Assembly (NCBI RefSeq): GCF_000223985.1 | Contig: NZ_AFWV01000005.1 | Location: forward strand, 124,001 to 188,000 | DNA: 64,000 nt | Direction: 5' to 3' | From: Thiocapsa marina 5811 | GTDB taxonomy: Bacteria; Pseudomonadota; Gammaproteobacteria; Chromatiales; Chromatiaceae | In this document: positions 20,696-38,094 of the stretch, in pieces | Layout of the letters: every line of letters starts with the position of its first letter | How positions within the stretch are numbered: position 1 is the stretch's first letter | Translations under genes and position numbers: made by a program | The notes under the pieces: model-generated | The model's input: only the letters and a program-made list of their open reading frames with translations | Database searches by the model: none | What the model was told of the DNA's origin: nothing

Positions 20696-20781
20696 TAAAC
20701 CGCGCCCGGCGCGGTATGCGATGTTTATCGGATGGGATCGGCCCCGGCAGACTTGACGGCCGCTGGATCCTGCACGGTTTA
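20696..20781. repeat. Dispersed TIR element, copy 1 (86 bp)
   Basis: Begins TAAACCGCG and ends CACGGTTTA, imperfect inverted ends shared with five other copies in the window. An inner hairpin CCGCGCC-C-GGCGCGG sits next to the left end. The right-end TTA (20779-20781) is, on the minus strand, the TAA stop codon of the CysZ-J gene. The element lies between that gene and the downstream RND adaptor gene, so it could end or attenuate read-through. Confidence 0.75.
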
Positions 20782-21960
20782 GTCCAACAGGACCTGTTTC
20801 GCCTCGTTGATCTTGGCGGCCAGATAGTCCGAGCCGCCGCGGTCCGGATGCAGTCGCTGGATGAGTCGCCGGTGCGCGCCCCGAACCTCCGGCGGACCGG
20901 CGTCGGGGCCGATACCGAGGATGGCGCGGGCCTCGTCCGGCTGCATGCGCTCGATCGGTGTGCGCGGTGTCTCGGCGTGTCGGCGGCGCGGTGCCTCCGC
21001 AGTCTTGCGGCCGCGTTCGCGATCGAGATAGACCTCGAGCGCCTCGGCCGACTCGGGGTCGCCGGCATAGCAGTGCTCGAGCATCTCGACGAGATCTTCG
21101 GTCGGCACCTGATCGAGCGAACGTCCGGCATGTGGTCCGACCAGAACCTCGCCGCCGATGCGCCCCGAAAGATGGTCGATCTCGAGCAGAACGCTGCGCG
21201 TCGCGACACGCGACCGGGTCGAGCTCTGATAGTGGGTCGCGCCCTTGAGCTCGCGGACCCACATGGCGGTGGCGCCCGCTACGGCGCTCGGCATCAGTAT
21301 GAAATTAACCACCGGGATCATGCTCAGTGTGGCCGCCGATGCGCCGAAACCAAGGCTCATTGCCCGTTGCCGACCGAGACGTCGGCGCATCTCGCGCAAC
21401 TTCATCCCGTGGTTTCCCATCGGATAATCCGAGTACTGAACGGCCAATACCCAGGCAATGTAAAGAAACCAGAGGACTTGTCCGATGACCGGTATAAACA
21501 GCAAGAGCAGGAAAGGGATCGCTAGAACAACGGCGTAAAGAAGTTTTCGGATCTCTTCCACGAGCGTCGGCACAATGTCGGACATGACGCCGGCAAGGGT
21601 GCTGCCCTCATCGAGCGGTCGCCCGGTCAGCATCCGCTCGACCTTCTCGGCCAAGAGGCTGTTGAAGGGCGACGCGATCAGATTTGCCGCCAGCGCGAAG
21701 AGGTTGAAGACCACGACGAGCAGGACCAGCACGAAAAGAGGCCAAAGCACCCAGTCCAGCCAGCCGAGCCAGCTCGGAAGGCGCGCGTCGAGGGTCGCGA
21801 GGAGGTTCCCGAACAGACGCACGCCCAAGGCGATGGCGGCAGAGAAGATGAGAATATTGACCGCGAGCGGGATCACGACGAATCGCCGCAACCCGGGTCG
21901 GGTGATCAGTCGCATACCTTGTAGTAGGTATCCGGCGCCTGAGAGAGGATTGGTTGCCAT
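20779..21960 (-). CDS. CysZ-like (EI24) membrane protein fused to a C-terminal J domain
   Basis: 393 aa. Residues about 1-235 match the CysZ/EI24 family, linked to sulfate uptake in E. coli: NPLSGAGYLLQGMRLI at the start, several hydrophobic segments, and LSMIPVVNFILMPSAVAGATAMW closing the module. From about 245 the sequence changes to the pattern of a separate gammaproteobacterial DnaJ-domain protein (TRSVLLEIDHLSGRIGGEVL, then DPESAEALEVYLDRE). The end is a J domain with the functional HPD in RLIQRLHPDRGGSDYLAAKI. I know the two halves as separate proteins; here they share one uninterrupted frame. ATG 21960 is preferred over an upstream GTG at 21969; neither has a strong ribosome site. The stop lies in a dispersed repeat. 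Confidence 0.88.
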   Translation of the reverse strand: MATNPLSGAGYLLQGMRLITRPGLRRFVVIPLAVNILIFSAAIALGVRLFGNLLATLDARLPSWLGWLDWVLWPLFVLVLLVVVFNLFALAANLIASPFNSLLAEKVERMLTGRPLDEGSTLAGVMSDIVPTLVEEIRKLLYAVVLAIPFLLLLFIPVIGQVLWFLYIAWVLAVQYSDYPMGNHGMKLREMRRRLGRQRAMSLGFGASAATLSMIPVVNFILMPSAVAGATAMWVRELKGATHYQSSTRSRVATRSVLLEIDHLSGRIGGEVLVGPHAGRSLDQVPTEDLVEMLEHCYAGDPESAEALEVYLDRERGRKTAEAPRRRHAETPRTPIERMQPDEARAILGIGPDAGPPEVRGAHRRLIQRLHPDRGGSDYLAAKINEAKQVLLD

Positions 21961-22345
21961 AGCGATCACGGGCGGCCGCAGCCTTTATCGAATCGGGTGA
22001 GTGCGGAACCGGGTCCCGGATCCAGAGGTCGGCACGGGCGTCGGTGCGCGTCTTGCCCGGCCGGCGATGTCCGCCGCAGTATAGCCGGGGCGCCCGCCAT
22101 GGGGCAGTCGGCATATCCCGCGTGACGGCCGACCGCCGAGAGGGCGGCGGCATCTGTCGGCGAGCGCTCGCTCGCCCCGGCGGACCTCCGGTGCTGCGGG
22201 GCCTGGGCCGAGCGCGATGGCTTCGACGCACACCCGATTGCAGCTCGATTGTGGTTCTCCCTTGAACCCGCGCGCCTATTCAGGCAGCCTAAGCAGGTTT
22301 TATGACCAAATCCATTTTTAACTGTCCCACACGAGGATCAACCTG
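21961..22345. other. Intergenic region between divergent genes
   Basis: About 385 bp between the divergent CysZ-J gene (minus) and the Pro/Ala-rich protein gene (plus). No supported open frame was found; short frames here have no ribosome site or recognisable family. The promoter of the plus-strand gene is probably in the AT-richer last 80 bp, and GAGGA at about 22332-22336 serves as its ribosome site. Confidence 0.5.
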
Positions 22346-23848
22346 ATGAAAGAGGTCGTGGCCACGCCCGCACGAGCGCGGGCAAAACTGGCGACTATCG
22401 ATATCGGTAAGACGTCCGTCTGGACCGTGGCCGTCGTGACTGTTGTCGGAACCCTGTACGTCACGCTTGCAGACCCTTTCGAGGAACCCGCGCCGCTCTC
22501 GCCGATTCAAGTCGCGGCGAATCTCGCCCCGATCGGAACCGTGGCGGTGACGCAGCCGCCTGCGCCTGCCGAGCCCACGCCCGCGCCGGTGGCCCAAGCA
22601 CCTGTCGAGCAGGCACCCGCGGAGCCCGAGGCAGCTCCCTCGCAAGCCGCCGGCGCGCCTCACTTCGCGCCTTTGCCGGCAGCGCCCGCAGAGAGTCCGG
22701 CGCAGCAGGCACTTGCGCCCGAGCCGTCAGCTCAACCCCCTGCTGAAGAGGCGGCCGCGAAGCCCGAGACCGTTCGTTCCGAGGTCGCCGGCGCCCGCCA
22801 CTTCGCGCCTCTGCCGGCAGTCCCCGCGCCGGCGCCCGAACCCGCAACGACGGTGGATTCCGCTGCCGTCGAGCCCGCGTCCGAGGCTGTCCCCGATGTC
22901 GCGGGCGAATCCGAGACCGCAACGGTCACGGAGATCGAGCCCGCAACCGCTCCGGCGAGCGAGGCCGAAGCCTCTGCCCCGGTTGCCGAGCCGGCCGCAG
23001 AGGTCACCGCGGAGCCGGCTCCGGTGAAGCCCGCGTCTCCGGCGGTCCGACGGCCGACAGAGTATCGGATGCCGCATTTCGCGCCCCTGCGGGGTGCGAC
23101 GACGACCGCTACGCCGAGCCCTGCGGCGGCACCCTCCCTTGCGCACCCGACCCGTCCTGTCCTTCAGGATGCGCCTGCCCCGACCGTCTCGGCCCCGCCG
23201 GCTGCCGCGCCCGTCGAAGAGCCGGTCGGCGCGAAGAGTGTCCCCGAGGCGCCGGACGCCCTCATCGAGGTGCCGGTGGCCATCGTGCCGATGACCCCGG
23301 AGCCTGTTTCCGAGCCTCCGGCGGCGGAGCCGGCAGCGGCTGAAGCGCATATGATCGAGGCGGAGGTCGTCGAGGCGCCGCCGGCCGCAGGCTCGGCATC
23401 CCCCGAGTCGGCCGCGGCAACGAACGATCAGCCGGTCGCGGCGGCACCCGCTCCGGCGCAGGTACCTGCTCCGGCAGCGGTGCCCGCTCCGGCGGCCGCA
23501 CCCGCTCCGGCCGAGGTGCCTGCTCCGGCGGCAGCGGTGCCCGCTCCGGCCGAGACACCCGCCCCGGCTGCGGCGCCTGCTCCGGCAGCCGCACCCGCTC
23601 CGGCCGAGACACCCGCCTCGGCTGCGGCGCCTGCTCCGGCAGTCGCACCCGCTCCGGCCGAGACACCCGCTCCGGCTGCGGCGTCTGCTCCGGCAGAAGC
23701 ACCTGCTCCGGTCGAGGCGCCTGCCCCGACCCCGGCGCCGGCTGTTGTTGCGCCGTTGGTGCCGGTCCCGGCAACGGAGGTCACTCCGACTCCTCCCGTT
23801 GTCGAGCCGATGCCGCGTTGGATGAATCACTTCGGGCCCATGCGCTGA
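22346..23848 (+). CDS. Pro/Ala-rich membrane-anchored protein with repeated HFAPL motif
   Basis: 500 aa of unknown family. A short N-terminal cytoplasmic part is followed by one membrane span (about 27-44, SVWTVAVVTVVGTLYVTLA); the rest is probably periplasmic and dominated by Pro, Ala and Glu, like the stalk of TonB-type proteins. A motif His-Phe-(Ala/Gly)-Pro-(Leu/Met) recurs at residues 106, 152, 244 and 495: APHFAPLPA, ARHFAPLPA, MPHFAPLRG and the extreme C-terminal NHFGPMR. Residues about 400-455 are encoded by 54-bp tandem repeats. The DUF2333 gene follows after 158 bp on the same strand, so a shared envelope role is possible (inference). Long minus-strand frames across it are artefacts of the repetitive composition. 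Confidence 0.8.
   Translation: MKEVVATPARARAKLATIDIGKTSVWTVAVVTVVGTLYVTLADPFEEPAPLSPIQVAANLAPIGTVAVTQPPAPAEPTPAPVAQAPVEQAPAEPEAAPSQAAGAPHFAPLPAAPAESPAQQALAPEPSAQPPAEEAAAKPETVRSEVAGARHFAPLPAVPAPAPEPATTVDSAAVEPASEAVPDVAGESETATVTEIEPATAPASEAEASAPVAEPAAEVTAEPAPVKPASPAVRRPTEYRMPHFAPLRGATTTATPSPAAAPSLAHPTRPVLQDAPAPTVSAPPAAAPVEEPVGAKSVPEAPDALIEVPVAIVPMTPEPVSEPPAAEPAAAEAHMIEAEVVEAPPAAGSASPESAAATNDQPVAAAPAPAQVPAPAAVPAPAAAPAPAEVPAPAAAVPAPAETPAPAAAPAPAAAPAPAETPASAAAPAPAVAPAPAETPAPAAASAPAEAPAPVEAPAPTPAPAVVAPLVPVPATEVTPTPPVVEPMPRWMNHFGPMR
23541..23702 (+). repeat. 54-bp in-frame tandem repeat (3 copies)
   Basis: Three head-to-tail copies start at 23541, 23595 and 23649, each beginning CCGCTCCGGCCGAGACACCC. 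Each encodes an 18-residue Pro/Ala unit (PAPAETPAxAAAxAPAxA), and partial copies flank them. Length change by slipped-strand or recombination events would keep the frame. Confidence 0.85.
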
Positions 23849-24006
23849 ACCGAGGTTTCCGCATCGGCCCACTCGATGGGCCGGTGCGGGCCTTGCCCGC
23901 CGGGTGCGTGACGACGGCGTAGCCGCGAGCTCGACATCGCTTCGAGGTCTCCGAGCGGCATCGCGGGCCCACGAATGCACACGCCTCAGAAAACATGGAG
24001 AATGTA

Positions 24007-25059
24007 ATGGAAAAGCCGCTCTCGAAGACCGTCACCAAGGTCGTCAAACTCTACGATCCGAGGACCTGGCGCGAAAAGGGTCTCTGGTGGACTGCCGGAC
24101 TGTTTGTCGTCACCTACCTGATCGTGATCACGGTACTCGGGATCTTCTGGTCGCGCTCCCCGTCGACCTTCGACGTCCGCGAGAAGGCGGCGAGCTTGGC
24201 CGGCGGCGATACCGCGAGCCTCGTGACAGGCACCTATACGACGGCGGTCGCCATCGGCATCGCCGAGACCCTGTTGGAGAAACCGGGCGGCTATCTCAGC
24301 AACGACATGACCCCGCCGGGTCTCTTGCTGGACAATATTCCGAACTGGGAGTTCGGAGCCTTGACCGAGCTGCGCGATCTGGCCCGCTCGATGCGCAACG
24401 ACTTCTCCCGCTCGCAGTCGCAATCGGTCGAAGACAAGGATCTTCAGGTGGCCGAGCCTCAGTTCAGCTATGACTCCGAGTCTTGGATCCTGCCGTCGAC
24501 CGAGTCGGAGTATCGCAAAGGGGTCGAGGCAATGTATTCCTACTTCACTCGACTCAGCGACGGCAACAAAGGCGACGGGCAGTTTTTCGCGCGTTCGGAC
24601 AATCTGAGCGCTTATCTCGCGGTCGTGGAGAAGCGTTTAGGCAGCCTCGCGCAACGCCTATCTTACGCCGTCGGGCAGGCCCAGCTGGATCTTTCGCTTG
24701 CCGGCGATCCGAGTGCGCGGGAGGCCCGCCCGACACCCGAGGTGATTCGGAACAAGACACCCTGGATGGACATCGACGATGTCTTTTTCGAGGCGCGCGG
24801 CTACACCTGGGCTCTGTTGCAGACCTTGCAGGCACTGTCGATCGATTTCGAGGCGGTGCTCGAGGACAAGACCGCGCAGCGTTCGCTCGACGAGATCATC
24901 CGCGAGCTCGGAAATACGCAGAATCCCATCTGGAGCCCCATGATCCTGAACGGTACCGGATTCGGCCCGATGGGCAATCATTCGCTCGTGATGGCGTCCT
25001 ATATCTCCCGTGCGAACGCGGCGATCATCGATCTCCGCAATCTCCTGGAGCGGGGCTGA
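24007..25059 (+). CDS. DUF2333 family membrane protein
   Basis: 350 aa. One N-terminal membrane span (GLWWTAGLFVVTYLIVITVLG) is followed by a large, probably periplasmic domain. Features I associate with DUF2333 are GGYLSNDMTPPGLLLDNIPNWEFG, ELRDLARSMRNDFSRSQSQS and MDIDDVFFEARGYTWALLQTL. The family's function is unknown. ATG 24007 is preferred over the in-frame ATG at 23995 because GGAG at 23997-24000 lies 6 nt upstream. It follows the HFAPL-motif protein on the same strand and converges on cysC. Confidence 0.88.
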   Translation: MEKPLSKTVTKVVKLYDPRTWREKGLWWTAGLFVVTYLIVITVLGIFWSRSPSTFDVREKAASLAGGDTASLVTGTYTTAVAIGIAETLLEKPGGYLSNDMTPPGLLLDNIPNWEFGALTELRDLARSMRNDFSRSQSQSVEDKDLQVAEPQFSYDSESWILPSTESEYRKGVEAMYSYFTRLSDGNKGDGQFFARSDNLSAYLAVVEKRLGSLAQRLSYAVGQAQLDLSLAGDPSAREARPTPEVIRNKTPWMDIDDVFFEARGYTWALLQTLQALSIDFEAVLEDKTAQRSLDEIIRELGNTQNPIWSPMILNGTGFGPMGNHSLVMASYISRANAAIIDLRNLLERG

Positions 25060-25074
25060 GGGAGCGAGTCTGAG

Positions 25075-25094
25075 CGCCGCGCGCAGACGCGGCG
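25075..25094. terminator. Hairpin between convergent genes
   Basis: A 7-bp perfect stem (CGCCGCG/CGCGGCG) with a 6-nt loop sits between the convergent DUF2333 and cysC genes. It has no T-run on either side, so a terminator role is only suggested by its position. Confidence 0.4.
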
Positions 25095-25112
25095 TCCGAC
25101 AGGCGCGGGATC

Positions 25113-25772
25113 TCAGGCCCTCGGCAGGATGATCCCGCTTTCGCGTAGGTAGGCGATCACCTCGTCGGCCAGGACATCCGGCGGGTTTCGGCCGGCATGG
25201 AGCTGGAGCTCCGGTGCGGTCGGGGCCTCGTACGGATCGTCGATCCCCGTGAAGCCCTTGATCTCGCCGGCGCGGGCCTTCTTATATAGCCCCTTGGGAT
25301 CGCGGGTTTCGCAGATCTCGATCGGGGTATCGATGAAGACCTCGATGAAATCGCCTTCCGGCATGGCGCGTCGCACCCGTTCACGGTCCGCCCGGTAGGG
25401 GCTGATGAATGCGGTCAGGGCGATGATCCCGGCCTGTGCAAAAAGGTGAGCGACTGCACCAATGCGACGAATGTTTTCTTCACGATCCATTGCGGAGAAT
25501 CCAAGGCCGAAACGCTGGGCGAACTCCTCGCCGTGGATCTCGCGGAGCATCCCGGGGCCGGCGTTGAGGGCGTGGCGGACGTTATCGCCGTCCAGCACTG
25601 CGCTGTGGATGCCCTGCTGGTGGAGCCGATGGTCCAGTGTGTTGGCGATCGTGCTTTTTCCCGAGCCGCTGAGTCCGGTGAACCAGAGCACGCAGCCCTT
25701 GTGGCCCTTCATCGCTTCGCGATCCAAGCGAGAGACCTGATGTTCGTGCCAGGTCACATTGGTGTCGTTCAT
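25113..25772 (-). CDS. cysC: Adenylyl-sulfate kinase (APS kinase)
   Basis: 219 aa. It phosphorylates adenosine 5'-phosphosulfate to PAPS, for assimilation or sulfotransfer. The P-loop GLSGSGKST (about residues 34-42), LDGDNVRHALN, FSAMDREENIRRIGAVAHLF, FISPYRADRERVR and the DPKGLYKKARAGEIKGFTGI stretch are hallmark CysC motifs. ATG 25772 is chosen because GGAGGA lies 6 nt upstream; a TTG two codons earlier is less likely. No sulfurylase (cysND or sat) is adjacent. Confidence 0.96.
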   Translation of the reverse strand: MNDTNVTWHEHQVSRLDREAMKGHKGCVLWFTGLSGSGKSTIANTLDHRLHQQGIHSAVLDGDNVRHALNAGPGMLREIHGEEFAQRFGLGFSAMDREENIRRIGAVAHLFAQAGIIALTAFISPYRADRERVRRAMPEGDFIEVFIDTPIEICETRDPKGLYKKARAGEIKGFTGIDDPYEAPTAPELQLHAGRNPPDVLADEVIAYLRESGIILPRA

Positions 25773-25997
25773 GGTCAATCCTCCAGGCTGTTTAATGGGT
25801 CGGCGCTCAAGTCAAGCAATAATAGTGCCGCGTACGCGATTCCTGGGCCTTGGCGCAATCGACACCGATCCCTGCGGAACGGTCTCCGGCGCTTTGAGCG
25901 AGCGACCTCGTCATCACGTCCAAAGCGGACGCGTCCCGAGAAAACCCGAGCCGGAGCACCGCGTTTGCGGTTATGAAGCGGCGCCGAGCGGCGGCGT

Positions 25998-26393
25998 TCA
26001 GGTCGCCGATGCGCGGGGGAGCGCGAACTGGGTCTCGACCGTGCCGCCGCAGCCGACGATGCACTCTTCATGCTGAATCCTGCAGATCGTCATGTCCGCA
26101 GCCTCGCATGGTGCGGGCCTGATGCAGAGCGCGCCCGGCGTGGCGAGACAGGCATCGTGTTCCGCCGAGAGCCGCTCGTAAAAAACTCGACACTCGTCCT
26201 CGCGCGTCCGTTGTCGCTGCTCGCACTGACTCCGGCTCAGTTCGCAACTTGCGACGCAAGCCTGTGCTTGCGGGTCCGTGGGCGGAATCAAGCTTCTTTC
26301 CTGCAGGTGATTTGTGCATCCGGCGGCTGCAAGTATCGCAAAGACGCCGATCGCGAGGCGCGCTGTGCGCACTGAAAAGATCCAGTTTGCCAT
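25998..26393 (-). CDS. Small cysteine-rich lipoprotein
   Basis: 131 aa of unknown family. A signal peptide ends in the lipobox LAAAGC (Cys about residue 26), so the mature protein should be lipid-anchored. The mature part is Cys-rich, with CVASCELSRSQCEQR, DECRVF, DACLATPGALC, PCEAADMTICR and ECIVGCGG, suggesting several disulfides in the periplasm or on the outer membrane. ATG 26393 is chosen because it places the signal peptide at the N-terminus; its ribosome site is weak. It is 27 bp downstream of another small membrane-protein gene on the same strand. Confidence 0.7.
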   Translation of the reverse strand: MANWIFSVRTARLAIGVFAILAAAGCTNHLQERSLIPPTDPQAQACVASCELSRSQCEQRQRTREDECRVFYERLSAEHDACLATPGALCIRPAPCEAADMTICRIQHEECIVGCGGTVETQFALPRASAT

Positions 26394-26419
26394 TGATGAT
26401 CTCGAGTGGGTCGGTAAGG

Positions 26420-26725
26420 TCATTGTCGTCTGCGCAGGCGGCGACCGAGCAGATAAAGCAGGGCACTGTTGATGCCGACGCCGATTGCAAGCAGGGCCAG
26501 GTTGAGTGCGGCCGAGTCGATTCCGAGTAGACCGTTGACCTGACTGACGAGCAGGCTCCATGGTAGCGCAAAGAGGACGAGAAAGATCCCGGACGATGGA
26601 TCGCCGCCGAACAGCAGGAGCGCGATGGCACCGACGGATACGGCGAGATAAAGGGCAATGAGGTTGCGCATCGCCGCCGGGATTTCGCTCTGCGCGGCGC
26701 TGGCCTTACGGGGGGCTTGTGGCAT
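26420..26725 (-). CDS. Small membrane protein, unknown family
   Basis: 101 aa with three hydrophobic segments (about 20-40, 45-62 and 72-92) and a short, strongly basic C-terminus (GRRLRRRQ). It has no motif I recognise; the profile resembles small SCO4225-type or other uncharacterised membrane proteins. ATG 26725 has GGAG 6 nt upstream. The frame is open further upstream, but that part has no ribosome site and lies over the intergenic region. It probably forms an operon with the downstream lipoprotein gene. Confidence 0.65.
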   Translation of the reverse strand: MPQAPRKASAAQSEIPAAMRNLIALYLAVSVGAIALLLFGGDPSSGIFLVLFALPWSLLVSQVNGLLGIDSAALNLALLAIGVGINSALLYLLGRRLRRRQ

Positions 26726-26866
26726 GATGAGCTCCTGCCGATTCGGGGATTGGACAGAGACGATGATCGGGCAGAGTCGGGCCGGTTGAGGGCCCATCAG
26801 ACCAAACCATTCGAGCGACCCGGGCGATCGCCCGGTTTGCCGACGACGGGCCGTGGAGAGACGCAA

Positions 26867-26974
26867 ATGAGCAAAGGCGAAGACAAGAAGAAGGAAGCGA
26901 AGAAACAGCCGTTGAAGAACATGAAGGAAAAACGTGCGGAGAAGAAGGCGAAGAAGGGCGGCCGAAGCGGCTGA
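26867..26974 (+). CDS. Small lysine-rich protein
   Basis: 35 aa, about 40 percent Lys, with Glu and Arg also common (MSKGEDKKKEAKKQPLKN at the start, ending KKGGRSG). GGAG about 8 nt upstream of ATG 26867 supports translation. I have seen short MSKG-type Lys-rich proteins annotated in many proteobacteria without function; a nucleic-acid-binding or charge-buffering role is guesswork. It converges with the iron transporter operon. Confidence 0.6.
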   Translation: MSKGEDKKKEAKKQPLKNMKEKRAEKKAKKGGRSG

Positions 26975-27027
26975 GTGCACCGAGCGCAAGCTGTACCCGA
27001 TTGCCTTGATCCGCGTCCATTTGCGGG

Positions 27028-28131
27028 TCAGGTTCGCGCCGGAGGACAGCTCGTCGCCACGTCTTCCGGCGCATCCGGCTCGCCGCCCGTGCAGGGAAAG
27101 ACGACGAGGTGATCGGCTTCGAGACGGATCCCGATCTCATCCCCGACCGCGTGCTGATGATGGCTCGGGACCAAGCACAGGACCTCGGTGCCGCTCGCCA
27201 ACCTGAGCTGGTAGAGGTATTCGGCGCCGCGAAAGGAGCGTTCCACGACGACAGCGCGCCTCGGGCTCGTTTCGTCGTAGAGCATATCGTCCGGTCGGAT
27301 CAATACCTCCGCCGTTGTTCCGGGCAAAAGACCATGCGGTTTGCTACCCGCGACGCGTCCCAGCTCGGTCTTCACGCGTGTCTCGTCCACGACGACCGCC
27401 GGGAGTAAGACGCCCTGGCCGATGAAACCGGCAACGAAGCGGTCGGCAGGCTCGTGGTAGAGGCCGAACCCGGTTCCCCATTGACGGATCTCGCCGTTGG
27501 CGATCACGCCGATCTGATCGGCCATGGCGAAGGCTTCGAGCTGATCGTGGGTGACGAGGATCGCTGTGACGCCCTCGCGTCTGAGTAGATTCCTGACCTC
27601 GCGCGCGAGCTGCTCGCGCAGCTCCGCGTCCATGCTGGAAAAGGGCTCGTCGAGCAACAGGATGTCGGGGCGCGGCGCCATGGCGCGGGCGAGGGCGACC
27701 CGCTGCTGCATGCCTCCGGAGAGCTCGTGTGGATACAGGGACGCGGCTTGACGCAGGTCGACCAGATCCAGGAGCTCCGCGACACGACGCTCCCGCTCGA
27801 CCCGTTTGAGTCCGCGCAGCCCGAACGCGACGTTGCGTGCGACCGTGAGGTGCGGGAACAAGGCGAAGTCCTGAAAGACCATGCCGACCCGCCGCTGCTC
27901 CGGGGGGAGGGTGTCGCCGGGAACCGAGACGCGACGTCCGTGCAGCAGGACCTCGCCGCCGCTGACCGGCTCGAACCCGGCGATAGCGCGCAGCAAGGTC
28001 GTCTTGCCGCAGCCGCTCGGCCCGAGCAGACACCCGATGATGCCTTGCTCGAGGACGAAGGACACATCGTGCACGATCCTGGTGTCGCCATAAGCGACGC
28101 TGACGTCTCTGACCTCAAGCTGTGTCGGCAT
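27028..28131 (-). CDS. fbpC: Ferric iron ABC transporter ATP-binding protein
   Basis: 367 aa. Walker A GPSGCGKTT, Q-loop FQDFALFPHLTV, signature LSGGMQQRVALARA, Walker B ILLLDEPFSSMD and the H-loop in ILVTHDQ are all present. A C-terminal TOBE-like regulatory part (about 240-350) is as in FbpC and related Fe3+, sulfate and polyamine ATPases. It overlaps the permease gene by 17 nt and is last in a minus-strand operon after the iron-binding protein and permease, which fixes the likely substrate as ferric iron. Confidence 0.92.
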   Translation of the reverse strand: MPTQLEVRDVSVAYGDTRIVHDVSFVLEQGIIGCLLGPSGCGKTTLLRAIAGFEPVSGGEVLLHGRRVSVPGDTLPPEQRRVGMVFQDFALFPHLTVARNVAFGLRGLKRVERERRVAELLDLVDLRQAASLYPHELSGGMQQRVALARAMAPRPDILLLDEPFSSMDAELREQLAREVRNLLRREGVTAILVTHDQLEAFAMADQIGVIANGEIRQWGTGFGLYHEPADRFVAGFIGQGVLLPAVVVDETRVKTELGRVAGSKPHGLLPGTTAEVLIRPDDMLYDETSPRRAVVVERSFRGAEYLYQLRLASGTEVLCLVPSHHQHAVGDEIGIRLEADHLVVFPCTGGEPDAPEDVATSCPPART

Positions 28132-29761: not shown

Positions 29762-29859
29762 GATCGCCTCATCTTGGAAAAGGACTGCCTCCGGGGTTGG
29801 GGATAGCCGGCACGAGAGGCCGGCCAGCCCCCATTATCGCGTCTCGGACGGTCGCGCGT

Positions 29860-30903: not shown

Positions 30904-30967
30904 GCGGTTGGGCCTCCTGTCGGGCCGACTGTGGTCTGGGGTCGTGACGCGTTTTCGTGTCGCGAAC

Positions 30968-30996
30968 AGAATAATGGGAACCGTTCGCATTAACAA
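30968..30996 (-). promoter_or_regulatory. fbpA promoter with Fur-box-like operator
   Basis: On the minus strand a -35 TTGTTA (30991-30996) and a -10 TATTCT (30968-30973) are 17 nt apart. The spacer and its edges (30973-30991) are the palindrome AATGCGAACGGTTCCCATT, whose arms AATGxGAA/TTCxCATT fit common Fur sites of the AATGAGAAT...ATTCTCATT type. A repressor there would block RNA polymerase directly. The site is read by eye; no matrix was run. Confidence 0.65.
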
Positions 30997-31154
30997 GTCC
31001 ACCCTGAATGTATTGCGAAAATTCGAATATAATCGCGCTGTTGTTTTAGTGGCCGCGCGGATGCACTTGAAACCCGGGCGCGGTGCTCGGACATCAGAGG
31101 CGGCGAGAGCCTCGCCAAACCGATCCCGATGCGTTCCGGAAGTCCCGCGGGATA

Positions 31155-31182
31155 TTGAAACCCGCAGCGAAGGGCGTATAGT
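31155..31182 (+). promoter_or_regulatory. Putative sufB sigma-70 promoter
   Basis: TTGAAA (31155-31160), a 16-nt spacer and TATAGT (31177-31182) lie 41 nt before the sufB start codon. No convincing IscR or SufR palindrome was seen beside it. The divergent fbpA promoter lies about 160 bp away. Confidence 0.55.
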
Positions 31183-31223
31183 AAATACCCAGTAAAACGC
31201 TCAAGAAAACGGAGCCAGGAGAG

Positions 31224-32669
31224 ATGACCTCAACCCAAGCTGTCGACGATATCGTCCGATCCGAGTACGAGCATGGTTTCGTGACCGAGATCGAGTCCGA
31301 TACCCTGCCGCCCGGTCTGGACGAAGGGGTGGTGCGTGCCATCTCCGCCCGCAAGGGCGAACCTGAGTTCATGACCGAGTGGCGGCTCAAGGCCTATCGG
31401 CATTGGTTGACCATGCCGACGCCGCACTGGGCCTCGGTCCATTATCCGCCGATCGATTTCCAATCGATCTCGTACTTCTCGGCCCCGAAGCGCCCTGAAG
31501 ACATGCCCAAGAGCCTCGACGAGATCGACCCCGCCTTGCTCGAGACCTACGAGAAGCTCGGCATCCCGATCGAGGAGCAAAAGGCGCTCGCCGGGATTGC
31601 CGTCGATGCAGTGTTCGACAGCGTCTCCGTCGCCACGACCTTCCGTTCCGCGTTGGCGGATGCGGGCGTGATCTTCTGCTCCATCTCGGAGGCGGTCCAC
31701 GAGCATCCGGAGCTGATTCAGAAATATCTGGGCTCGGTTGTTCCGCATACCGATAACTTCTATGCCGGACTCAACGCAGCGGTCTTCAGCGACGGCACCT
31801 TCGTCTATGTTCCCGAGGGGGTGCGCTGTCCGATGGAGCTCAGCACCTACTTTCGGATCAATGCACGCAACACGGGTCAGTTCGAGCGAACCCTGATCGT
31901 CGCCGAGGCCGGGAGCTACGTCAGCTACCTCGAAGGTTGCACGGCGCCCCAGCGCGACGAGAACCAGCTCCACGCCGCGGTTGTCGAGCTGATCGCCATG
32001 GACGACGCCGAGATCAAGTACTCGACGGTTCAGAACTGGTATCCAGGCGACGCCGAAGGCCGTGGCGGCATCTACAACTTCGTCACCAAGCGCGGAGATT
32101 GTCGCGGTGCGCGCTCCAAGATCTCCTGGACTCAGGTCGAGACCGGCTCCGCGATCACCTGGAAATATCCCAGCTGCATCCTGCGCGGCGACGACTCGAT
32201 CGGCGAGTTCTACTCGGTGGCCGTCACCAAGGGCCGTCAGCAAGCCGATACCGGCACCAAGATGATCCACCTCGGGCGCAACACCCGCTCGACCATCGTC
32301 TCCAAGGGGATCTCCGCCGGCGAGGGTCAGCAGACCTATCGCGGCCTGGTGCGGATCAGTCAGCGGGCCGAGGGTGCGCGCAATCACACCCAGTGCGACT
32401 CTCTGCTGATCGGGGACCGGTGCACCGCGAACACCTTTCCGTACATCGAGGTCAAGCACCCGAGCGCGAATCTCGAGCATGAGGCAACCACCTCGAAGAT
32501 CAGTGACGATCAGCTGTTCTACTGCCGCTCGCGCGGACTCACCGAGGAAGACGCGGTCTCGATGATCGTCAACGGCTTCTGCAAAGAGGTCTTCAACGAG
32601 CTGCCGATGGAGTTCGCGGTCGAGGCACAGAAGCTCTTGAGTATCAGCTTGGAAGGCGCCGTCGGTTGA
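31224..32669 (+). CDS. sufB: Fe-S cluster assembly scaffold protein SufB
   Basis: 481 aa. SufB pairs with SufD and the ATPase SufC to build Fe-S clusters. Typical stretches are [69 protein letters not shown] split over a conserved Cys, [15 protein letters not shown] and [12 protein letters not shown], the last with the conserved cluster/persulfide Cys. GGAG at 31211-31214 is 9 nt before the ATG. It is the first gene of a sufB-C-D-T cluster, separated from sufC by 213 bp containing a dispersed repeat and an inverted repeat. Confidence 0.97.
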
Positions 32670-32675
32670 ACCTTG

Positions 32676-32760
32676 TTGAGCCGCGTTCGGATGATCATGC
32701 ACGCTTCGTGCATTTGTTCGGTCTCGCGGCGATCAACGCCCTTCGCGCGACGCGGTTCAA
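32676..32760. repeat. Dispersed TIR element, copy 2 (85 bp, variant ends)
   Basis: Ends are TTGAGCCGCG and CGCGGTTCAA, the same ends as the other copies with two compensating changes that keep them complementary. Inside is a perfect hairpin ATGCACG-CTT-CGTGCAT (32697-32713) followed by TTGTT. It starts 6 nt after the sufB stop codon. Confidence 0.65.
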
Positions 32761-32808
32761 GACCTTGAAACGAAATTAAATACATCGATCGCGTCAGCTC
32801 GGACGTTT

Positions 32809-32830
32809 ATCGACTGGCTCTCTAGTCGAT
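32809..32830. promoter_or_regulatory. Inverted repeat upstream of sufC
   Basis: ATCGACT-8 nt-AGTCGAT, a perfect 7-bp palindrome ending 52 nt before the sufC start. It could be an operator or an mRNA hairpin; no known binding motif was recognised. Confidence 0.4.
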
Positions 32831-32882
32831 CCGATCAAAAGATCGAGCATGTTGCGCCGGACGCGATCGATCAGGAGACTTA

Positions 32883-33637
<755 letters not shown>

Positions 33638-33641
<4 letters not shown>

Positions 33642-34963
33642 ACGGCGCGGCGCCCACCAGCTTCGACACCTGGCTCTCCGCGCGTGCGGATGGCGAGGCC
33701 GGCGCCGGGCTCGATTGGCTCGAGGCGCAGCGGCGCAGCGCACTCCACCAGGTGCGCGAGCAAGGCGTGCCGGGAACCAAACAGGAGGCGTGGCGCTATA
33801 CCAGTCTGAAGCGACTGATCGAGCAGGGTTTTGCGCGTGTGGAGGACGAGGTCACCGCGCTGCAGCTGCACGACATCGAGGAGTTGCTGATACCGGGGCT
33901 GGATAGCCATCGCGTGGTGATGGTGAACGGACGTTATACGCCTTCGCTGTCGGCACTCGGCGACCTCCCCCCGGGGGTTCGCGTCACCGGTCTACGGGCC
34001 CTGCTCGCAAGCGATCCCGACGCCCTGCGCGAGCGACTCAACGGCGTCGCCGGCGAGAGTCAGCCTTTATTTGCAGCCCTGAACACGGCGGGCCTGGACG
34101 ACGGCCTGGTGGTCTTGCTCGACCGCGGTGCCGTCCTGGAACGGCCGATCGAGCTGATCCATCTCTCCGTCGGCATGGACGAGCCGCGGGTTGCACAGCC
34201 CCGCCATTTGGTCGCGCTTGCCGACGGCGCGCAGGCGAGCCTGATCGAGCGGTACGTGAGTCTCGGCGAGTCGCTCTACTGCACCAACTCGGTGTTGGAG
34301 CTGTCGCTCGGGCGGGACGCGGTGCTGAAGCACGACCGAATCCAGATCGAGAGTCCGAATGCATTCCATATCACGGGCCTTTATCTGAGCCAGGACGCCG
34401 GCAGCCGTTATGTCGGCGTCAACGTCGGCCTGGGCGCTGCCTGGGCGCGGACCGATCTGGTCACCCGCTTCAGAGGCGAACACGCCGAATGCGACCTGCA
34501 GGGGCTCTATCTGGCGGGCGACCGTCAATTGATGGACTACCACATCGACGTGGATCATGCGGTTCCGTCGTGCTCGAGCCGCGAGACCTTCAAGGGCATC
34601 CTCTACGGCAAGGGCCGGGCGGTGTTCGACGGGCGTGTCGTTGTAGCCAAGGATGCGCAAAAGACCGACGCGGCCATGTCGAACAAGAATCTCATGCTGT
34701 CCCAGAATGCGGAGATCGATACCAAGCCGCAGCTCGAGATCAACGCCGACGATGTGAAGTGCAGCCACGGCACGACGGTCGGCCAAATCGAGCCCGAGAA
34801 GCTGTTCTATCTGCGCTCGCGCGGCATCTCCGCGCCGCTCGCGCGGCGCATGCTTTGCATGGGATTCGCCGAGGAGATCATCGATGCATTGCAGAGCGAT
34901 GCACTGCGCGAGGTGGTTTCGGAGGAGGTCGGGCGTCGACTCGAAACAGCTCCATTAACCTAA
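33638..34963 (+). CDS. sufD: Fe-S cluster assembly protein SufD
   Basis: 441 aa paralogue of SufB with the N-terminal extension typical of SufD (WLEAQRRSALHQVREQGVPGTKQEAWRYTSLKRL, the GTKxExWRYT motif). The C-terminal beta-helix core contains HVDHAVPSCSSRETFKGIL-like sequence (seen as YHIDVDHAVPSCSSRETFKG), KCSHGTTVGQIEPEKLFYLRSRG and GFAEEIIDAL. It overlaps sufC by 4 nt. Its TAA stop (34961-34963) is the first three bases of a dispersed TIR element. Confidence 0.96.
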
Positions 34964-35072
34964 ACCGCGTTCGCAGTAGTCTTCGATGGACGCGGCGACG
35001 TTCATGGAGGCAATAGGCTCCGCGAGGACCGAGTCGAACGAAAGCATCGCATGTCGCACCGGACGCGGTTTA
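34961..35072. repeat. Dispersed TIR element, copy 3 (112 bp)
   Basis: Begins TAAACCGCG and ends CGCGGTTTA, with perfect 9-bp inverted ends. The opening TAA is the sufD stop codon. It is longer than the other copies. It ends 28 nt before the sufT start, so it fills nearly the whole gap between sufD and sufT. Confidence 0.8.
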
Positions 35073-35100
35073 ACCGGAAATTGTAGTCAAGAGGTCGAGC

Positions 35101-35505
35101 ATGAACAGACTGGCCCGCTTCGCCGGCTTCGGGAAGCACGACGAGGAAAGTGCGAATTCGGCCGTGCTGACGGAGGATGTCGCGGTCGAGCAGATGAACG
35201 CCGAGGAGCTGCGCGAGCCGATCATCGAAGCGCTTCGCACGGTGCAGGACCCCGAGATACCCATCAATATCTATGACTTGGGCCTAATCTACCGGGTCGA
35301 CATCTCCCCGGTGGGCGATGTGTCGATCGACATGACGCTGACCGCGCCGGCCTGTCCGGTCGCCGGCATGATGCCGATCATGGTCAAGGATGCCGTTTCG
35401 AGGGTCGAGGGCGTCGGCCTGGTTCAGGTCGAGCTGGTGTGGGATCCGCCCTGGAGCCAGACAAACATGAGCGACGAGGCGCGTCTCCAGCTCGGGTTGA
35501 TGTGA
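35101..35505 (+). CDS. sufT: SufT-like Fe-S assembly factor (MIP18/DUF59 family)
   Basis: 134 aa. A short variable N-terminus precedes a DUF59 domain with IIEALRTVQDPEIPINIYDLGLIY, the TLTAPACPVAGMMP block with the conserved Cys, and ELVWDPPWSQTNMSDEAR. SufT-type proteins help mature Fe-S proteins and commonly close suf operons. GAGG lies 6 nt before the ATG. No cysteine desulfurase (sufS) or sufU/sufE follows; the next gene is on the other strand. Confidence 0.93.
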   Translation: MNRLARFAGFGKHDEESANSAVLTEDVAVEQMNAEELREPIIEALRTVQDPEIPINIYDLGLIYRVDISPVGDVSIDMTLTAPACPVAGMMPIMVKDAVSRVEGVGLVQVELVWDPPWSQTNMSDEARLQLGLM

Positions 35506-35511
35506 CGGCGC

Positions 35512-35595
35512 TAAACCGCGTCCGGAGCGAATGGCTTACTTTCGAGTGAGCTCGACGTTCGGTGCACCTGCATTCCGTAGTGGGAACGCGGTTTA
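35512..35595. repeat. Dispersed TIR element, copy 4 (84 bp)
   Basis: Begins TAAACCGCG and ends CGCGGTTTA, with perfect 9-bp ends. It starts 6 nt after the sufT stop codon. A second copy follows 22 bp later, reaching the 3' end of the convergent phosphodiesterase gene. Confidence 0.8.
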
Positions 35596-35617
35596 AAATT
35601 GAATATTTTCGATATCT

Positions 35618-35701
35618 TAAACCACGCAGACTCCAACGTTCGTCAAGTCTGCGGGCCCGATCCCATCCAGAACTGTCACACACTGCGCCAAGCGCGGTTT
35701 A
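35618..35701. repeat. Dispersed TIR element, copy 5 (84 bp)
   Basis: Begins TAAACCACG (one mismatch) and ends CGCGGTTTA. An inner stem GCAGACT/AGTCTGC lies next to the left end. The right-end TTA (35699-35701) is the TAA stop of the minus-strand phosphodiesterase gene. Confidence 0.78.
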
Positions 35702-36901
35702 AGTGCGCAATAGACACAAGGGCACCCGAAGCTCGGCGTCGCTGAGCCCGCCGTGGACCCCGATCTGCCGATGTGGCTGCTCGAAGGGCAGCCACTGTCG
35801 GATCACCCCGTTGCCCCTCGGAAGCAGGCAGACATCCCCGACGCGCTCCATGAACCGCGGATGTCGCTTTCCGGTGCCGAAAAAACCCTCCTCGACGAGC
35901 TGCGCGCTCGCCACCAGATCGACTCGGTCCGCCAGGACGTCGCTGCAATGATCGCGAAAGGCGTCCGCATGTCCAGATCGCAGATAGCAAAAAGCCGCTC
36001 TAGGCTCTCCGCACAGCGGAAGTAAGAGATGGGTTTCAAGCTCGGGATGATCGGCGAGATCGATCGTGTCCGCGGGCCGCGTATCCAACTGCCCGTGATC
36101 CGCGCTGATCAGCAGCACGGTGTCCGTACCGGCGATCTCGTGCATGAAGGACGCAATCTCCTGCTCGATCTCGCGAAGATGGGCCAATGCGGCCGGACTC
36201 TCCATGCCCTGCTCGTGACCGATGGCGTCCAATCGCGGCCAATAAAGATAGAGGTACTTGGGTTCACGTCGACGCCGCCCCCAGCCGCGGAGAACCCCCG
36301 CGGTTCGCACGAACATGTCGCGCAATCCCTTGAAGGTCGCCAGCTCGCCGCGTCCGAGGTGCGCGCGGTTGAAGTCCGACCGGGCGATATGCGCCGGCGA
36401 GACCAGGATGCTGCGGGTGGCAATCCGGTCGGTGATCGGTGTGTTTGCGAAGAGCTTGACCGGATCGATCCCGGCCTTTCGATACGGGACACCGCCGAAG
36501 CGTGGCGTGCCCGGCAGCACCGTCATCACGCATCCGAGCTCGCCGAGATAGGTATGCCAGCCGGTGAGCCCGTGTGCGAGCGGCGCCTCGCCGGTCAGAA
36601 AGGTCGGGATCGCCGCCGCCGTCGTCGAGGGAAAGACCGAGGTGAGGATCGCGCGTCGGGCTCGGCTCAGGATCCCGTCCGGTGATTGCCTGGCGAGCCA
36701 ATCGGCGCCGAGGCCGTCGATCACCAGCAGAATGAGGTTGGTGGCTTGCGCCAGCTCATCCGTCGGCAGATCGCGCAGGCTCGGGGCGTCGGATCGCCCG
36801 CCGCGGGCCTGGATGATGCTGCTCATCAGATTGACGATGCCGCCGCCGTCGTAGTCCGGTCGTGCCGTCGCGGTCGCTTCCGCTGGCCGGGGATTGACCA
36901 T
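35699..36901 (-). CDS. Type I phosphodiesterase / nucleotide pyrophosphatase family protein
   Basis: 400 aa, alkaline-phosphatase superfamily. Metal and catalytic signatures of the NPP group are present in order: ILLVIDGLGADWL (Asp), FPSTTAAAIPTFLTGEAP (nucleophile Thr), YLYWPRLDAIGHEQG (Asp and His), LLISADHGQ (Asp-His) and QIGVHGGLSDAEL (His). No signal peptide is seen, so it is probably cytoplasmic. A nucleotide- or phosphonate-type diester substrate is possible but unproved. It converges with sufT and its stop codon is provided by a dispersed repeat. Confidence 0.88.
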   Translation of the reverse strand: MVNPRPAEATATARPDYDGGGIVNLMSSIIQARGGRSDAPSLRDLPTDELAQATNLILLVIDGLGADWLARQSPDGILSRARRAILTSVFPSTTAAAIPTFLTGEAPLAHGLTGWHTYLGELGCVMTVLPGTPRFGGVPYRKAGIDPVKLFANTPITDRIATRSILVSPAHIARSDFNRAHLGRGELATFKGLRDMFVRTAGVLRGWGRRRREPKYLYLYWPRLDAIGHEQGMESPAALAHLREIEQEIASFMHEIAGTDTVLLISADHGQLDTRPADTIDLADHPELETHLLLPLCGEPRAAFCYLRSGHADAFRDHCSDVLADRVDLVASAQLVEEGFFGTGKRHPRFMERVGDVCLLPRGNGVIRQWLPFEQPHRQIGVHGGLSDAELRVPLCLLRT

Positions 36902-36971
36902 GATTCCACCCCCCCGTTGCGTGTTGGTCGGTCAAGGCCGTTGCGATCTCGGCTTCGAGCCTCGTCGCGGA

Positions 36972-37784
36972 TCACCACACCAGCATCAGGATGACGGCGC
37001 CCAGCAGGATCCGGTAGATCACGAAGGGCAGCATGCTGATGCGTTCGATGAATTTTAGGAAGTAGTGAATGGTCAGGTAGGCGAAGACGAAGGACAGGGC
37101 CGCTCCGAGCAACAACGACATCCAGTCGACCGGCTCGCCGGCCTGCAGCAGGTCGAGCGTTTCCAGCCCGCCCGCCATGATGATGGTCGGGATCGCGAGC
37201 AGGAACGAAAAGCGCGAGGCCGCCTTGCGGGTCAGTCCGAGCATGAGCGCCGCCGTGATGGTGATGCCCGAGCGCGAGGTCCCCGGAATGATCGCGATCG
37301 CCTGCATGACGCCGACGAACAGGGCCGCCTTCCAGCCGAGGCTGTACTCGTCGCGCGCACGTTTTCCGCTGAAGTCCGCCCACCACAGCAGCAATCCGAA
37401 GCCGATACTGGTGGCCGCAACCACCAGGGCGACGAGGGTCGGGTCGTCGCGCAAGACCTCGAGCACGGACTTCAGCGGCAGGCCAAGCAGGACCACAGGC
37501 AGGGTGGCGAGGATGATCATCCAGCCGAGGCGGGCATCGGGTGCGTCGAATCGGCGTGTGCGCAACGACTGCAGCACGGCGATCGTCATGGTCACGATCT
37601 CGCGCCTGAAATAGAGCATCACCGCGGCGAGTGTACCCAAATGCAACGCGACATCGAAGGCGAGACTCTGCAGCTCGTAGCCGAACAGCAGCGGTGTCAG
37701 AATCAGATGTCCCGAGCTCGAGATCGGCAAGAACTCGGTAATGCCCTGAACGAACGCAAGTAAGACGATCTGAATGGTTTCCAA
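36972..37784 (-). CDS. uppP: Undecaprenyl-diphosphatase UppP (BacA)
   Basis: 270 aa, normal for the family. It dephosphorylates undecaprenyl pyrophosphate to recycle the cell-wall lipid carrier and gives bacitracin tolerance. The two signatures GITEFLPISSSGHLIL (residues 15-30) and PGTSRSGITITAALMLGL, with the catalytic Glu, His and Arg, are intact, with about eight membrane spans. It lies 70 bp upstream of the phosphodiesterase gene on the same strand. Confidence 0.96.
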   Translation of the reverse strand: METIQIVLLAFVQGITEFLPISSSGHLILTPLLFGYELQSLAFDVALHLGTLAAVMLYFRREIVTMTIAVLQSLRTRRFDAPDARLGWMIILATLPVVLLGLPLKSVLEVLRDDPTLVALVVAATSIGFGLLLWWADFSGKRARDEYSLGWKAALFVGVMQAIAIIPGTSRSGITITAALMLGLTRKAASRFSFLLAIPTIIMAGGLETLDLLQAGEPVDWMSLLLGAALSFVFAYLTIHYFLKFIERISMLPFVIYRILLGAVILMLVW

Positions 37785-37917
37785 CGAACGGCGCTCCTCG
37801 GGATTGAAGGCCCGGATTATACGCGGCGGCCCGGCCCTTTCGCTGCCGATCGACGACGTCGGGCTTGCTGATCAATCCGGCCACGGCGCGGAGCGCAGCG
37901 CACGGAGGACAAGCACC

Positions 37918-38003
37918 GTAGGGTGGACAAGCGCAGCGCAGTCCACCAAGTGCCGGCGCCGACGCAAGACTCGGTGGACTTCGCTCTTGCTCGTCCACCC
38001 TAC
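37918..38003. repeat. GTAGGGTGGAC-type palindromic repeat
   Basis: Starts GTAGGGTGGACAAGCGCAGC and ends GTCCACCCTAC; the ends are perfect 11-bp inverted repeats around an inner GTCCACC/GGTGGAC pair. This matches a widespread proteobacterial REP-like intergenic sequence I know as GTAGGGTGGA-type. It lies between uppP and a phosphopantetheinyl transferase, directly beside a copy of the other repeat family. Confidence 0.8.
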
Positions 38004-38008
38004 CGGCC

Positions 38009-38094
38009 TAAACCGCGCCGGCTCCAACACGTGTCGGAGCCGGCGCGGCCAAGCCAATCCAACAAACGACGCCTATCGCTCCGGGTGCGGTTTA
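38009..38094. repeat. Dispersed TIR element, copy 6 (86 bp)
   Basis: Begins TAAACCGCG and ends GTGCGGTTTA. Positions 38013-38048 form a 13-bp perfect stem (CCGCGCCGGCTCC and its complement) with a 10-nt loop. The right-end TTA (38092-38094) is the TAA stop codon of the minus-strand phosphopantetheinyl transferase gene. Confidence 0.8.

What the first reader, a model, noticed from the sequence alone, without database searches (positions are those of the whole stretch)
20696..38094. Six dispersed elements with TAAACCGCG/CGCGGTTTA ends, all placed exactly at gene 3' ends
Copies at 20696-20781, 32676-32760, 34961-35072, 35512-35595, 35618-35701 and 38009-38094. Five are 84-86 bp and one is 112 bp. 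The ends are inverted repeats, and most copies have an inner hairpin. In four copies the terminal TAA is the stop codon of the neighbouring gene (CysZ-J, sufD, phosphodiesterase, phosphopantetheinyl transferase); the other two begin 6 nt after a stop (sufB, sufT). Each gene reads into the element. The copy with changed ends (TTGAGCCGCG/CGCGGTTCAA) keeps complementarity, which implies selection for the fold. This looks like a short mobile or spread palindromic element used as a gene terminator or 3'-end protector. I do not recognise the family.
Basis: seen in the sequence. Interest (0 to 1): 0.78.

Follow-up and report, generated by a model that had tools for sequence, protein, structure and literature searches.

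The report
Mobile palindromic element at stop codons
Purple sulfur bacteria carry hundreds of short mobile DNA pieces that slip into the stop codon or the first bases after a gene without changing the protein, and the older ones keep a matching stem at a fixed length, which suggests that the folded form may be useful.

Summary
The host genome (family Chromatiaceae, probably Thiocapsa) holds 313 copies with exact ends, 70-100 bp long; the reversed-pattern control finds none. Of 171 copies studied, 156 are 84-86 bp.

The common form is a head-to-head pair of two unlike modules around an AT-rich spacer of 22-25 bp. Filled and empty sites in same-genus genomes show insertion into a TA that is then duplicated; the target is YTAR. 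TAA and TAG stops often contain YTAR, so insertion there leaves the protein intact. That explains the exact stop-codon fusion. A preference for the first ~20 bp after genes goes beyond site supply and promoter avoidance; REPs are reported to share it.

Older copies keep the spacing and a stem whose arms change together (33 of 163 candidates at 85-88 bp, 26 of 2664 at other lengths). At shared loci arms diverge more slowly than interiors.

A terminator role is not supported; a stem in the mRNA 3' region is plausible but untested. No transposase was found. It resembles TA-flanked MITEs and REPINs but fits neither fully.

The parts
20696..20781 (+). single module, A type, 86 bp; its last three bases (TTA) are the stop codon of the minus-strand CysZ-like gene
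32677..32759 (.). left module of the sufB|sufC pair, 83 bp (85 bp, 32676-32760, with arms TTGAGCCGCG/CGCGGTTCAA); begins 6-7 nt after the sufB TGA
32760..32784 (.). AT-rich spacer of the sufB|sufC pair, 25 bp
34961..35072 (.). 112-bp copy; first TAA is the sufD stop; a whole pair stands here in G121, G120 and G023, so probably a deletion product
35512..35595 (+). left module of the pair between the sufT-like and the phosphodiesterase gene, C type, 84 bp
35596..35617 (.). 22-bp AT-rich spacer of that pair
35618..35701 (-). right module of that pair, A type, 84 bp; its end TTA is the stop codon of the minus-strand phosphodiesterase gene
38009..38094 (-). single module, A' type with strong inner hairpin, 86 bp; its end TTA is the stop codon of the minus-strand phosphopantetheinyl-transferase gene

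Best explanation
A miniature, non-coding mobile element of Thiocapsa and relatives. Its common mobile unit is two unlike 84-86 bp modules in head-to-head orientation, joined by a 22-25 bp AT-rich spacer; each module is closed by its own 9-11 bp inverted arms (TAAACCGCGYC...GRCGCGGTTTA). A transposase acting in trans inserts the unit, or a single module, into the TA of YTAR and duplicates the TA (shown by filled and empty sites; the enzyme is inferred). Because the element starts with AA after the TA, an insertion into TAA or TAG stops rebuilds TAA and leaves the protein unchanged (follows from the sequence). Insertions are found mainly within about 20 bp of a stop codon (shown), because the insertion machinery prefers such places, because they are transcribed but free of essential signals, or because the stem is of use there (inferred). 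In long-lived copies the interior drifts while arm pairing and module length are kept (shown statistically), most likely because the module acts as a stem in the mRNA 3' region (inferred). Transposase family (IS630/Tc1-mariner type), transcription and any effect on mRNA are inferred, not shown.
For: Copy number and controls. Spread: 12 of 116 genomes drawn from the family have exact copies, own genome included; the four of the own genus in that draw have 313, 213, 121 and 275. Pairs: 53 of 57 adjacent modules head-to-head, 50 of 57 join one A-class with one B/C-class module; 30 of 31 head-to-head in 800 kb of two same-genus genomes. Target: 85 of 90 TA-ended loci read YTAR. Filled/empty sites with one TA: three are clean to the base (own C58:209578 against G121, G023b:70441 against G121, G121a:108695 against G023) and three are cleared with small differences nearby (own C62:132109, own C62:128737, G121a:177239); four of the six units are pairs, two are singles. 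Two places where neighbouring modules share one TA. Use of YTAR sites: stop 48 used/170 free, up to 60 bp downstream 22/108, other intergenic 15/698, divergent 5/318, genes 0/816; convergent regions: stop 20 of 78, 0-20 bp 7 of 27, 21-60 bp 1 of 22, beyond 1 of 52. Pairing: 33 of 163 non-coding CGCG..CGCG candidates at 85-88 bp have at least 5 of 6 complementary outer bases, against 26 of 2664 at other lengths; 24 of the 33 are fully complementary against 3.9 with partners swapped. At six orthologous loci arms changed at 10 of 180 sites, interiors at 102 of 663 (summed by hand).
Against: No transposase with these ends was found: one search lists 44 DDE_3 (IS630-type) matches in 10 genomes, and none of the 31 such loci that I could read has the ends as flanking inverted repeats (one, L273, holds two end words on the same side). 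Nor was a longer element with these ends and a transposase gene seen in the sequence in hand. Two loci give an empty relative without a recognisable TA (sufT|phosphodiesterase and C58:114382, both in G023). Copies found by their interiors, mostly young, show little compensation: 4 paired against 114 one-sided arm changes in 207 of 216 copies. The RNA-level prediction of G-U over A-C intermediates is not significant (27 against 18, p 0.23). Orientation of pairs relative to the gene is not biased (17 AB, 12 BA). Low indel rates may explain part of the length conservation. Young and old loci are equally common at 3' ends (51 of 66, 36 of 50; 18 mixed loci left out), so slow sorting by selection does not explain placement. 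The six orthologous loci were picked because one genome's copy has good ends, which favours conserved arms somewhat.
Confidence: 0.7

Rival explanations
1. Intrinsic transcription terminator that spread by being useful at gene ends.
For: Position at 3' ends and in convergent regions; the AT-rich spacer of pairs holds T runs in one direction.
Against: No terminator-like site at any of the six modules in the 7.1 kb scanned; copies lie between same-direction suf genes; close tandem gene pairs are occupied as often as convergent ones (24 of 100, 28 of 127); pairs show no preferred orientation to the gene.
Confidence: 0.08
2. A REP/REPIN element moved by a RAYT tyrosine transposase.
For: Inverted conserved ends at set spacing, compensatory changes, head-to-head dimers and location just downstream of genes are also described for REPs and REPINs (PMC3116915 and PMC3733652, passages); 8 Y1_Tnp matches in the genome.
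Against: No GTAG tag at the ends; TA on both sides with target YTAR; none of the eight Y1_Tnp loci has the element on both sides (one, L168, has a single module near one end). The genome has a separate GTAGGGTG family, and inverted GGGTGGACAAGC repeats stand on both sides of one Y1_Tnp gene.
Confidence: 0.1
3. Pure selfish MITE: the 3'-end bias is where insertion is preferred or harmless, and paired arm changes arise by template switching between the arms, without use to the host.
For: Interior evolves like ordinary intergenic DNA (18.6% against 19.1%); young copies show one-sided decay; bias already present in young loci.
Against: Arms diverge more slowly than interiors at shared loci; many different arm words all remain paired in copies with decayed interiors; convergent sites more than 60 bp from a stop, where no promoter is at risk, are nearly empty (1 of 52), though an insertion preference would explain that too.
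Confidence: 0.35
4. DNA-level structure: a protein bridges, or a cruciform forms from, arms held about eight helical turns apart, for nucleoid or supercoiling control.
For: Length of 84-86 bp is kept in all types; no orientation effect for pairs.
Against: The arms vary in sequence while staying paired, which a sequence-specific protein would not need; the preference for the first 20 bp after genes points to transcripts.
Confidence: 0.1

Closest known systems
TA-flanked bacterial MITEs: RUP, ERIC/IRU, Correia/NEMIS
   Same: About 100-200 bp, terminal inverted repeats, TA at the ends and target duplication, transcripts predicted to fold (PMC2229807, section 4 read); ERIC RNA reported to affect mRNA stability of flanking genes (same paper, passages).
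   Different: Sequence and host differ; here two unlike modules of set length in head-to-head pairs, arms that co-vary in old copies, and 48 of 218 usable stop-codon sites occupied. I ran no sequence comparison with those families.
REPIN (REP doublet moved by RAYT)
   Same: Inverted ends at a set distance, variable middle whose length matters, compensatory changes (PMC3116915, passages).
   Different: No GTAG, TA on both sides with YTAR target, no linked RAYT found.
CGTC-tagged REPs
   Same: Head-to-head dimers, located close (<20 bp) downstream of genes, no known transposase (PMC3733652, abstract and passages); the old-copy consensus contains CGTC at positions 8-11.
   Different: Those have 8-9 bp stems with 4-5 base loops and an unpaired tag; here CGTC is part of an 11-bp stem around a loop of about 62-64 bases.
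IS630/Tc1-mariner insertion sequences
   Same: TA target, duplicated (PMC2170065, abstract and passages); IS630 preference for CTAG seen there only as a reference title.
   Different: No such transposase locus that I could read carries the AACCGCG ends.

Membership tests
MITE of a TA-duplicating (IS630/Tc1-mariner type) transposon | short, non-coding, terminal inverted repeats, many copies | tested here: met
MITE of a TA-duplicating (IS630/Tc1-mariner type) transposon | TA target duplicated on insertion | tested here: met
   six filled/empty loci, three of them clean to the base; YTAR at 85 of 90 loci; two further empty loci show no TA
MITE of a TA-duplicating (IS630/Tc1-mariner type) transposon | ends shared with an autonomous element | tested here: not met
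   none of 31 readable IS630-type loci has the ends; not exhaustive, 44 matches were listed and other transposase families with TA targets were not searched
REP/REPIN | GTAG tag and linked RAYT gene | tested here: not met
   no GTAG in the arms; eight Y1_Tnp loci not flanked on both sides by the element
CGTC-tagged REP | 8-9 bp stem, 4-5 base loop, unpaired CGTC tag | tested here: not met
   CGTC lies inside the paired arms; loop about 62-64 bases
Intrinsic terminator | short GC-rich hairpin followed by a T run | tested here: not met
   7.1 kb that hold six of the seven modules of the window
Known structured RNA family | match to an Rfam model | tested here: not met
   no match at gathering score in the window
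Functional mRNA 3'-end stem | effect on RNA ends or stability | not testable with these tools
   needs RNA data

The most novel reading that the evidence does not exclude
The family is a mobile element that the host has turned, many times over, into a fixed-length stem just after stop codons: old copies that can probably no longer move keep an 84-86 bp frame and a covarying closing stem because the mRNA needs it, so the genome carries hundreds of 3'-end RNA structures, many of which arose by insertion into the stop codon itself.
Probability: 0.3. Interest if true: 0.78.

Novelty: new variant of a known kind. Interest (0 to 1): 0.57.

Why it matters
It gives a simple, testable reason why a repeat can sit exactly on a stop codon: the target YTAR contains the first bases of TAA/TAG and the element restores TAA. 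It also provides hundreds of natural copies of different age in same-genus genomes, in which one can ask whether a selfish palindrome becomes a useful mRNA end structure. Earlier work notes REP and BOX ends that supply stop codons and REPs close to gene 3' ends (PMC3733652, PMC3049150; passages); occupancy per available target site, as measured here, separates target supply from true preference.

Tried and rejected
Structured RNA of a known family: no Rfam match at gathering score. tRNA: no ARAGORN hit in the window. IS630-type driver: none of 31 readable loci has the ends as flanking inverted repeats. Y1/RAYT driver: none of eight loci flanked on both sides. Autonomous element with the modules as its two ends: in the stretches between outward-facing modules I recognised no transposase; in the own genome and L074/L090 I judged translations by eye without a family search, in G121 Pfam gave biotin-dependent carboxylase genes; a second G121 stretch was not opened. 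Spread by viruses: no exact match in viral contigs; the plasmid search used a locus with suf genes, the eight rows shown lie in suf homologues or unannotated records, so it says little about the element. The Laspinema hit looks like chance: its stretch is unlike the element and reads like coding DNA (by eye). RNA-level test by G-U against A-C: not significant. Indel rate as proof of length selection: not significant (6 against 41 regions). Orientation: pairs 17 AB, 12 BA; singles 27 same, 14 opposite, read as weak. Arm changes: reciprocal rows count a locus twice, so I summed one direction of each by hand (six loci) and dropped the row G121b:125010, whose partner is misaligned; two of the 33 (arms GCCCCG/CGGGAC) are copies of another repeat, and the length range 85-88 was chosen; in the sister samples (all positions, 400 kb each) several hits are plainly not this element. 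One search's occupancy table left stop-codon sites out of the free count; one search replaces it. One search places 84 TA-ended loci; others lie outside its intergenic limits. Gene calls come from my own ORF script: starts are rough, stops firm. The genus name is inferred from named records that share the element, not from a direct match of the window.

Print searches: 'Thiocapsa' with 'miniature inverted-repeat' 0 papers; 'Chromatiaceae, repetitive, palindromic' 1, seen as listing; MITE, stop codon, IS630 and others 97, 20 listed; ERIC/TA/stop codon 9, 8 listed; Yersinia palindromes 1; the end words as letters 72, the 20 listed unrelated by title; purple sulfur bacteria with repeats 42, 20 listed, none on this subject by title; IS630 CTAG 3; ERIC compensatory 3. 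Opened: PMC2229807 (passages, section 4), PMC3733652 (abstract, passages), PMC3049150, PMC2170065 and PMC3116915 (passages).
Full report
What was checked. In the whole 5.59-Mb genome of the window the exact ends TAAACCGCG and CGCGGTTTA stand at a total length of 70-100 bp 313 times; the control pattern, read backwards, gives 0. Of 116 family genomes drawn, own included, 12 have exact copies, and the four of the own genus in that draw have 313, 213, 121 and 275.

Anatomy. In 1.64 Mb (29%) of the genome I find 171 hits with at most two mismatches in 18 end bases and a length of 78-92 bp; 156 are 84-86 bp. 124 fall into six sequence types and 47 into small or single groups with very different interiors, which still share a weak consensus. 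Adjacent modules form pairs, mostly with a 22-25 bp AT-rich spacer: 53 of 57 are head-to-head and 50 of 57 join one A-class with one B/C-class module; in 800 kb of two same-genus genomes 30 of 31 are head-to-head. So a common unit is a pair of unlike modules of about 190-195 bp, in either orientation; of 124 loci, 80 are nonetheless single modules, 41 double and 3 triple (counting only copies with good ends).

Movement. Comparison with same-genus genomes gives filled and empty sites: the empty site has a single TA where the filled site has TA on both sides. Three cases are clean to the base (two pairs, one single) and three more agree with small differences nearby (two pairs, one single). Two other loci have an empty relative without a recognisable TA. 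Twice two modules share one TA. At 85 of 90 TA-ended loci the rebuilt target is YTAR. At sufT-like|phosphodiesterase no module is seen in G023, G122 and G119, and in G117 a pair of other types stands at the same TA in the opposite orientation. TA-duplicating transposases of the IS630/Tc1-mariner type behave like this (PMC2170065, abstract and passages); the transposase itself was not found.

Why stop codons. A YTAR target includes CTAG, CTAA, TTAG and TTAA, so every TAA or TAG stop after a pyrimidine is a target, and because the element begins with AA the stop is rebuilt as TAA. At the sufD stop, a more distant genome without the element (G116) reads CTAG, and two others have TGA at the same codon. 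Relative to available sites, use is 48 to 170 free at stops, 22 to 108 within 60 bp downstream, 15 to 698 elsewhere between genes, 5 to 318 in divergent regions and 0 to 816 inside genes. Stop and near-downstream sites do not differ (p 0.27). Thus the exact fusion with stop codons needs no recognition of stop codons. The preference for gene 3' ends itself is real: in convergent regions, where no promoter can be harmed, 27 of 105 sites at the stop or within 20 bp are used against 1 of 22 at 21-60 bp and 1 of 52 beyond. Young and old loci share this bias (51 of 66 and 36 of 50), so it is set at or soon after insertion. A similar closeness to gene ends is reported for REPs (PMC3733652, passages).

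Pairing and length. Genome-wide, I asked only for CGCG..CGCG in non-coding DNA with neither arm reading TAAAC. At total length 85-88 bp (chosen after the survey), 33 of 163 have at least 5 of 6 complementary outer bases; at other lengths 26 of 2664 do (p 6e-27); 24 of the 33 are fully complementary against 3.9 when partners are swapped, and there are 19 different left arm words (two of the 33 belong to another repeat). Smaller samples of two same-genus genomes point the same way (7 of 317 against 50 of 5821, p 0.03; 13 of 312 against 52 of 4828, p 1e-4). These copies have diverged interiors. Against this, 216 copies found by their interiors, mostly young, show 4 paired and 114 one-sided arm changes (207 counted); their arms differ from the consensus at 4.5% of sites, their interiors from the type consensus at 13.2%. 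So pairing is kept in copies that have lasted. At six shared loci the arms changed at 10 of 180 sites and the interiors at 102 of 663 (summed), while interiors diverge as ordinary intergenic DNA does (18.6% and 19.1%). The interior does not fold better than chance except in type A'.

Function. A terminator is unlikely: no terminator-like site at the six modules scanned, copies between same-direction suf genes, equal occupancy in close tandem and convergent settings (24 of 100, 28 of 127), no orientation bias for pairs. The pattern (just after the stop, pairing kept, interior free) fits a stem in the mRNA 3' region, as proposed for other MITEs and REPs (PMC2229807 and PMC3733652, passages). I did not test RNA. 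The G-U test for RNA-level selection was not significant, and template switching between arms could also create paired changes.

Placement among known things. It works like a TA-flanked MITE in its movement and like a REPIN in its set spacing and compensatory arms (PMC3116915, passages), but it lacks GTAG and a linked RAYT, and it differs from CGTC-tagged REPs in stem and loop. I file it as a new variant of the known kind 'small palindromic mobile elements'.

Noticed in passing
window 37918-38003: A second dispersed family, GTAGGGTGGACAAGCG...CACCCTAC, REP-like with GTAG; the 8-mer GTAGGGTG occurs 111 times (both strands) in 1.64 Mb, and inverted GGGTGGACAAGC repeats flank a Y1_Tnp (possible RAYT) gene at G000:C62:147573-147854 (L173).
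   Followed up: partly
G000:C61:47519-47541: A 23-bp minimal copy, TAAACCGCG CCGGG CGCGGTTTA, with only the two arms left.
   Followed up: no
G121 and G117, sufB|sufC region (L218, L217): The outer arm is repeated in tandem two or three times (TTGAACCGC units of about 10-11 bp).
   Followed up: no
L127, about 2040-2300: An AT-rich insert of roughly 250 bp with inverted ends near GTTCTACTTTGTTA interrupts a module in another genome; looks like a different small mobile element.
   Followed up: no
G122 sufB|sufC (L221): In a same-genus genome with few matches to the element (6) the same pair has decayed and its arms no longer match, while five genomes with the pair readable keep the arms.
   Followed up: no
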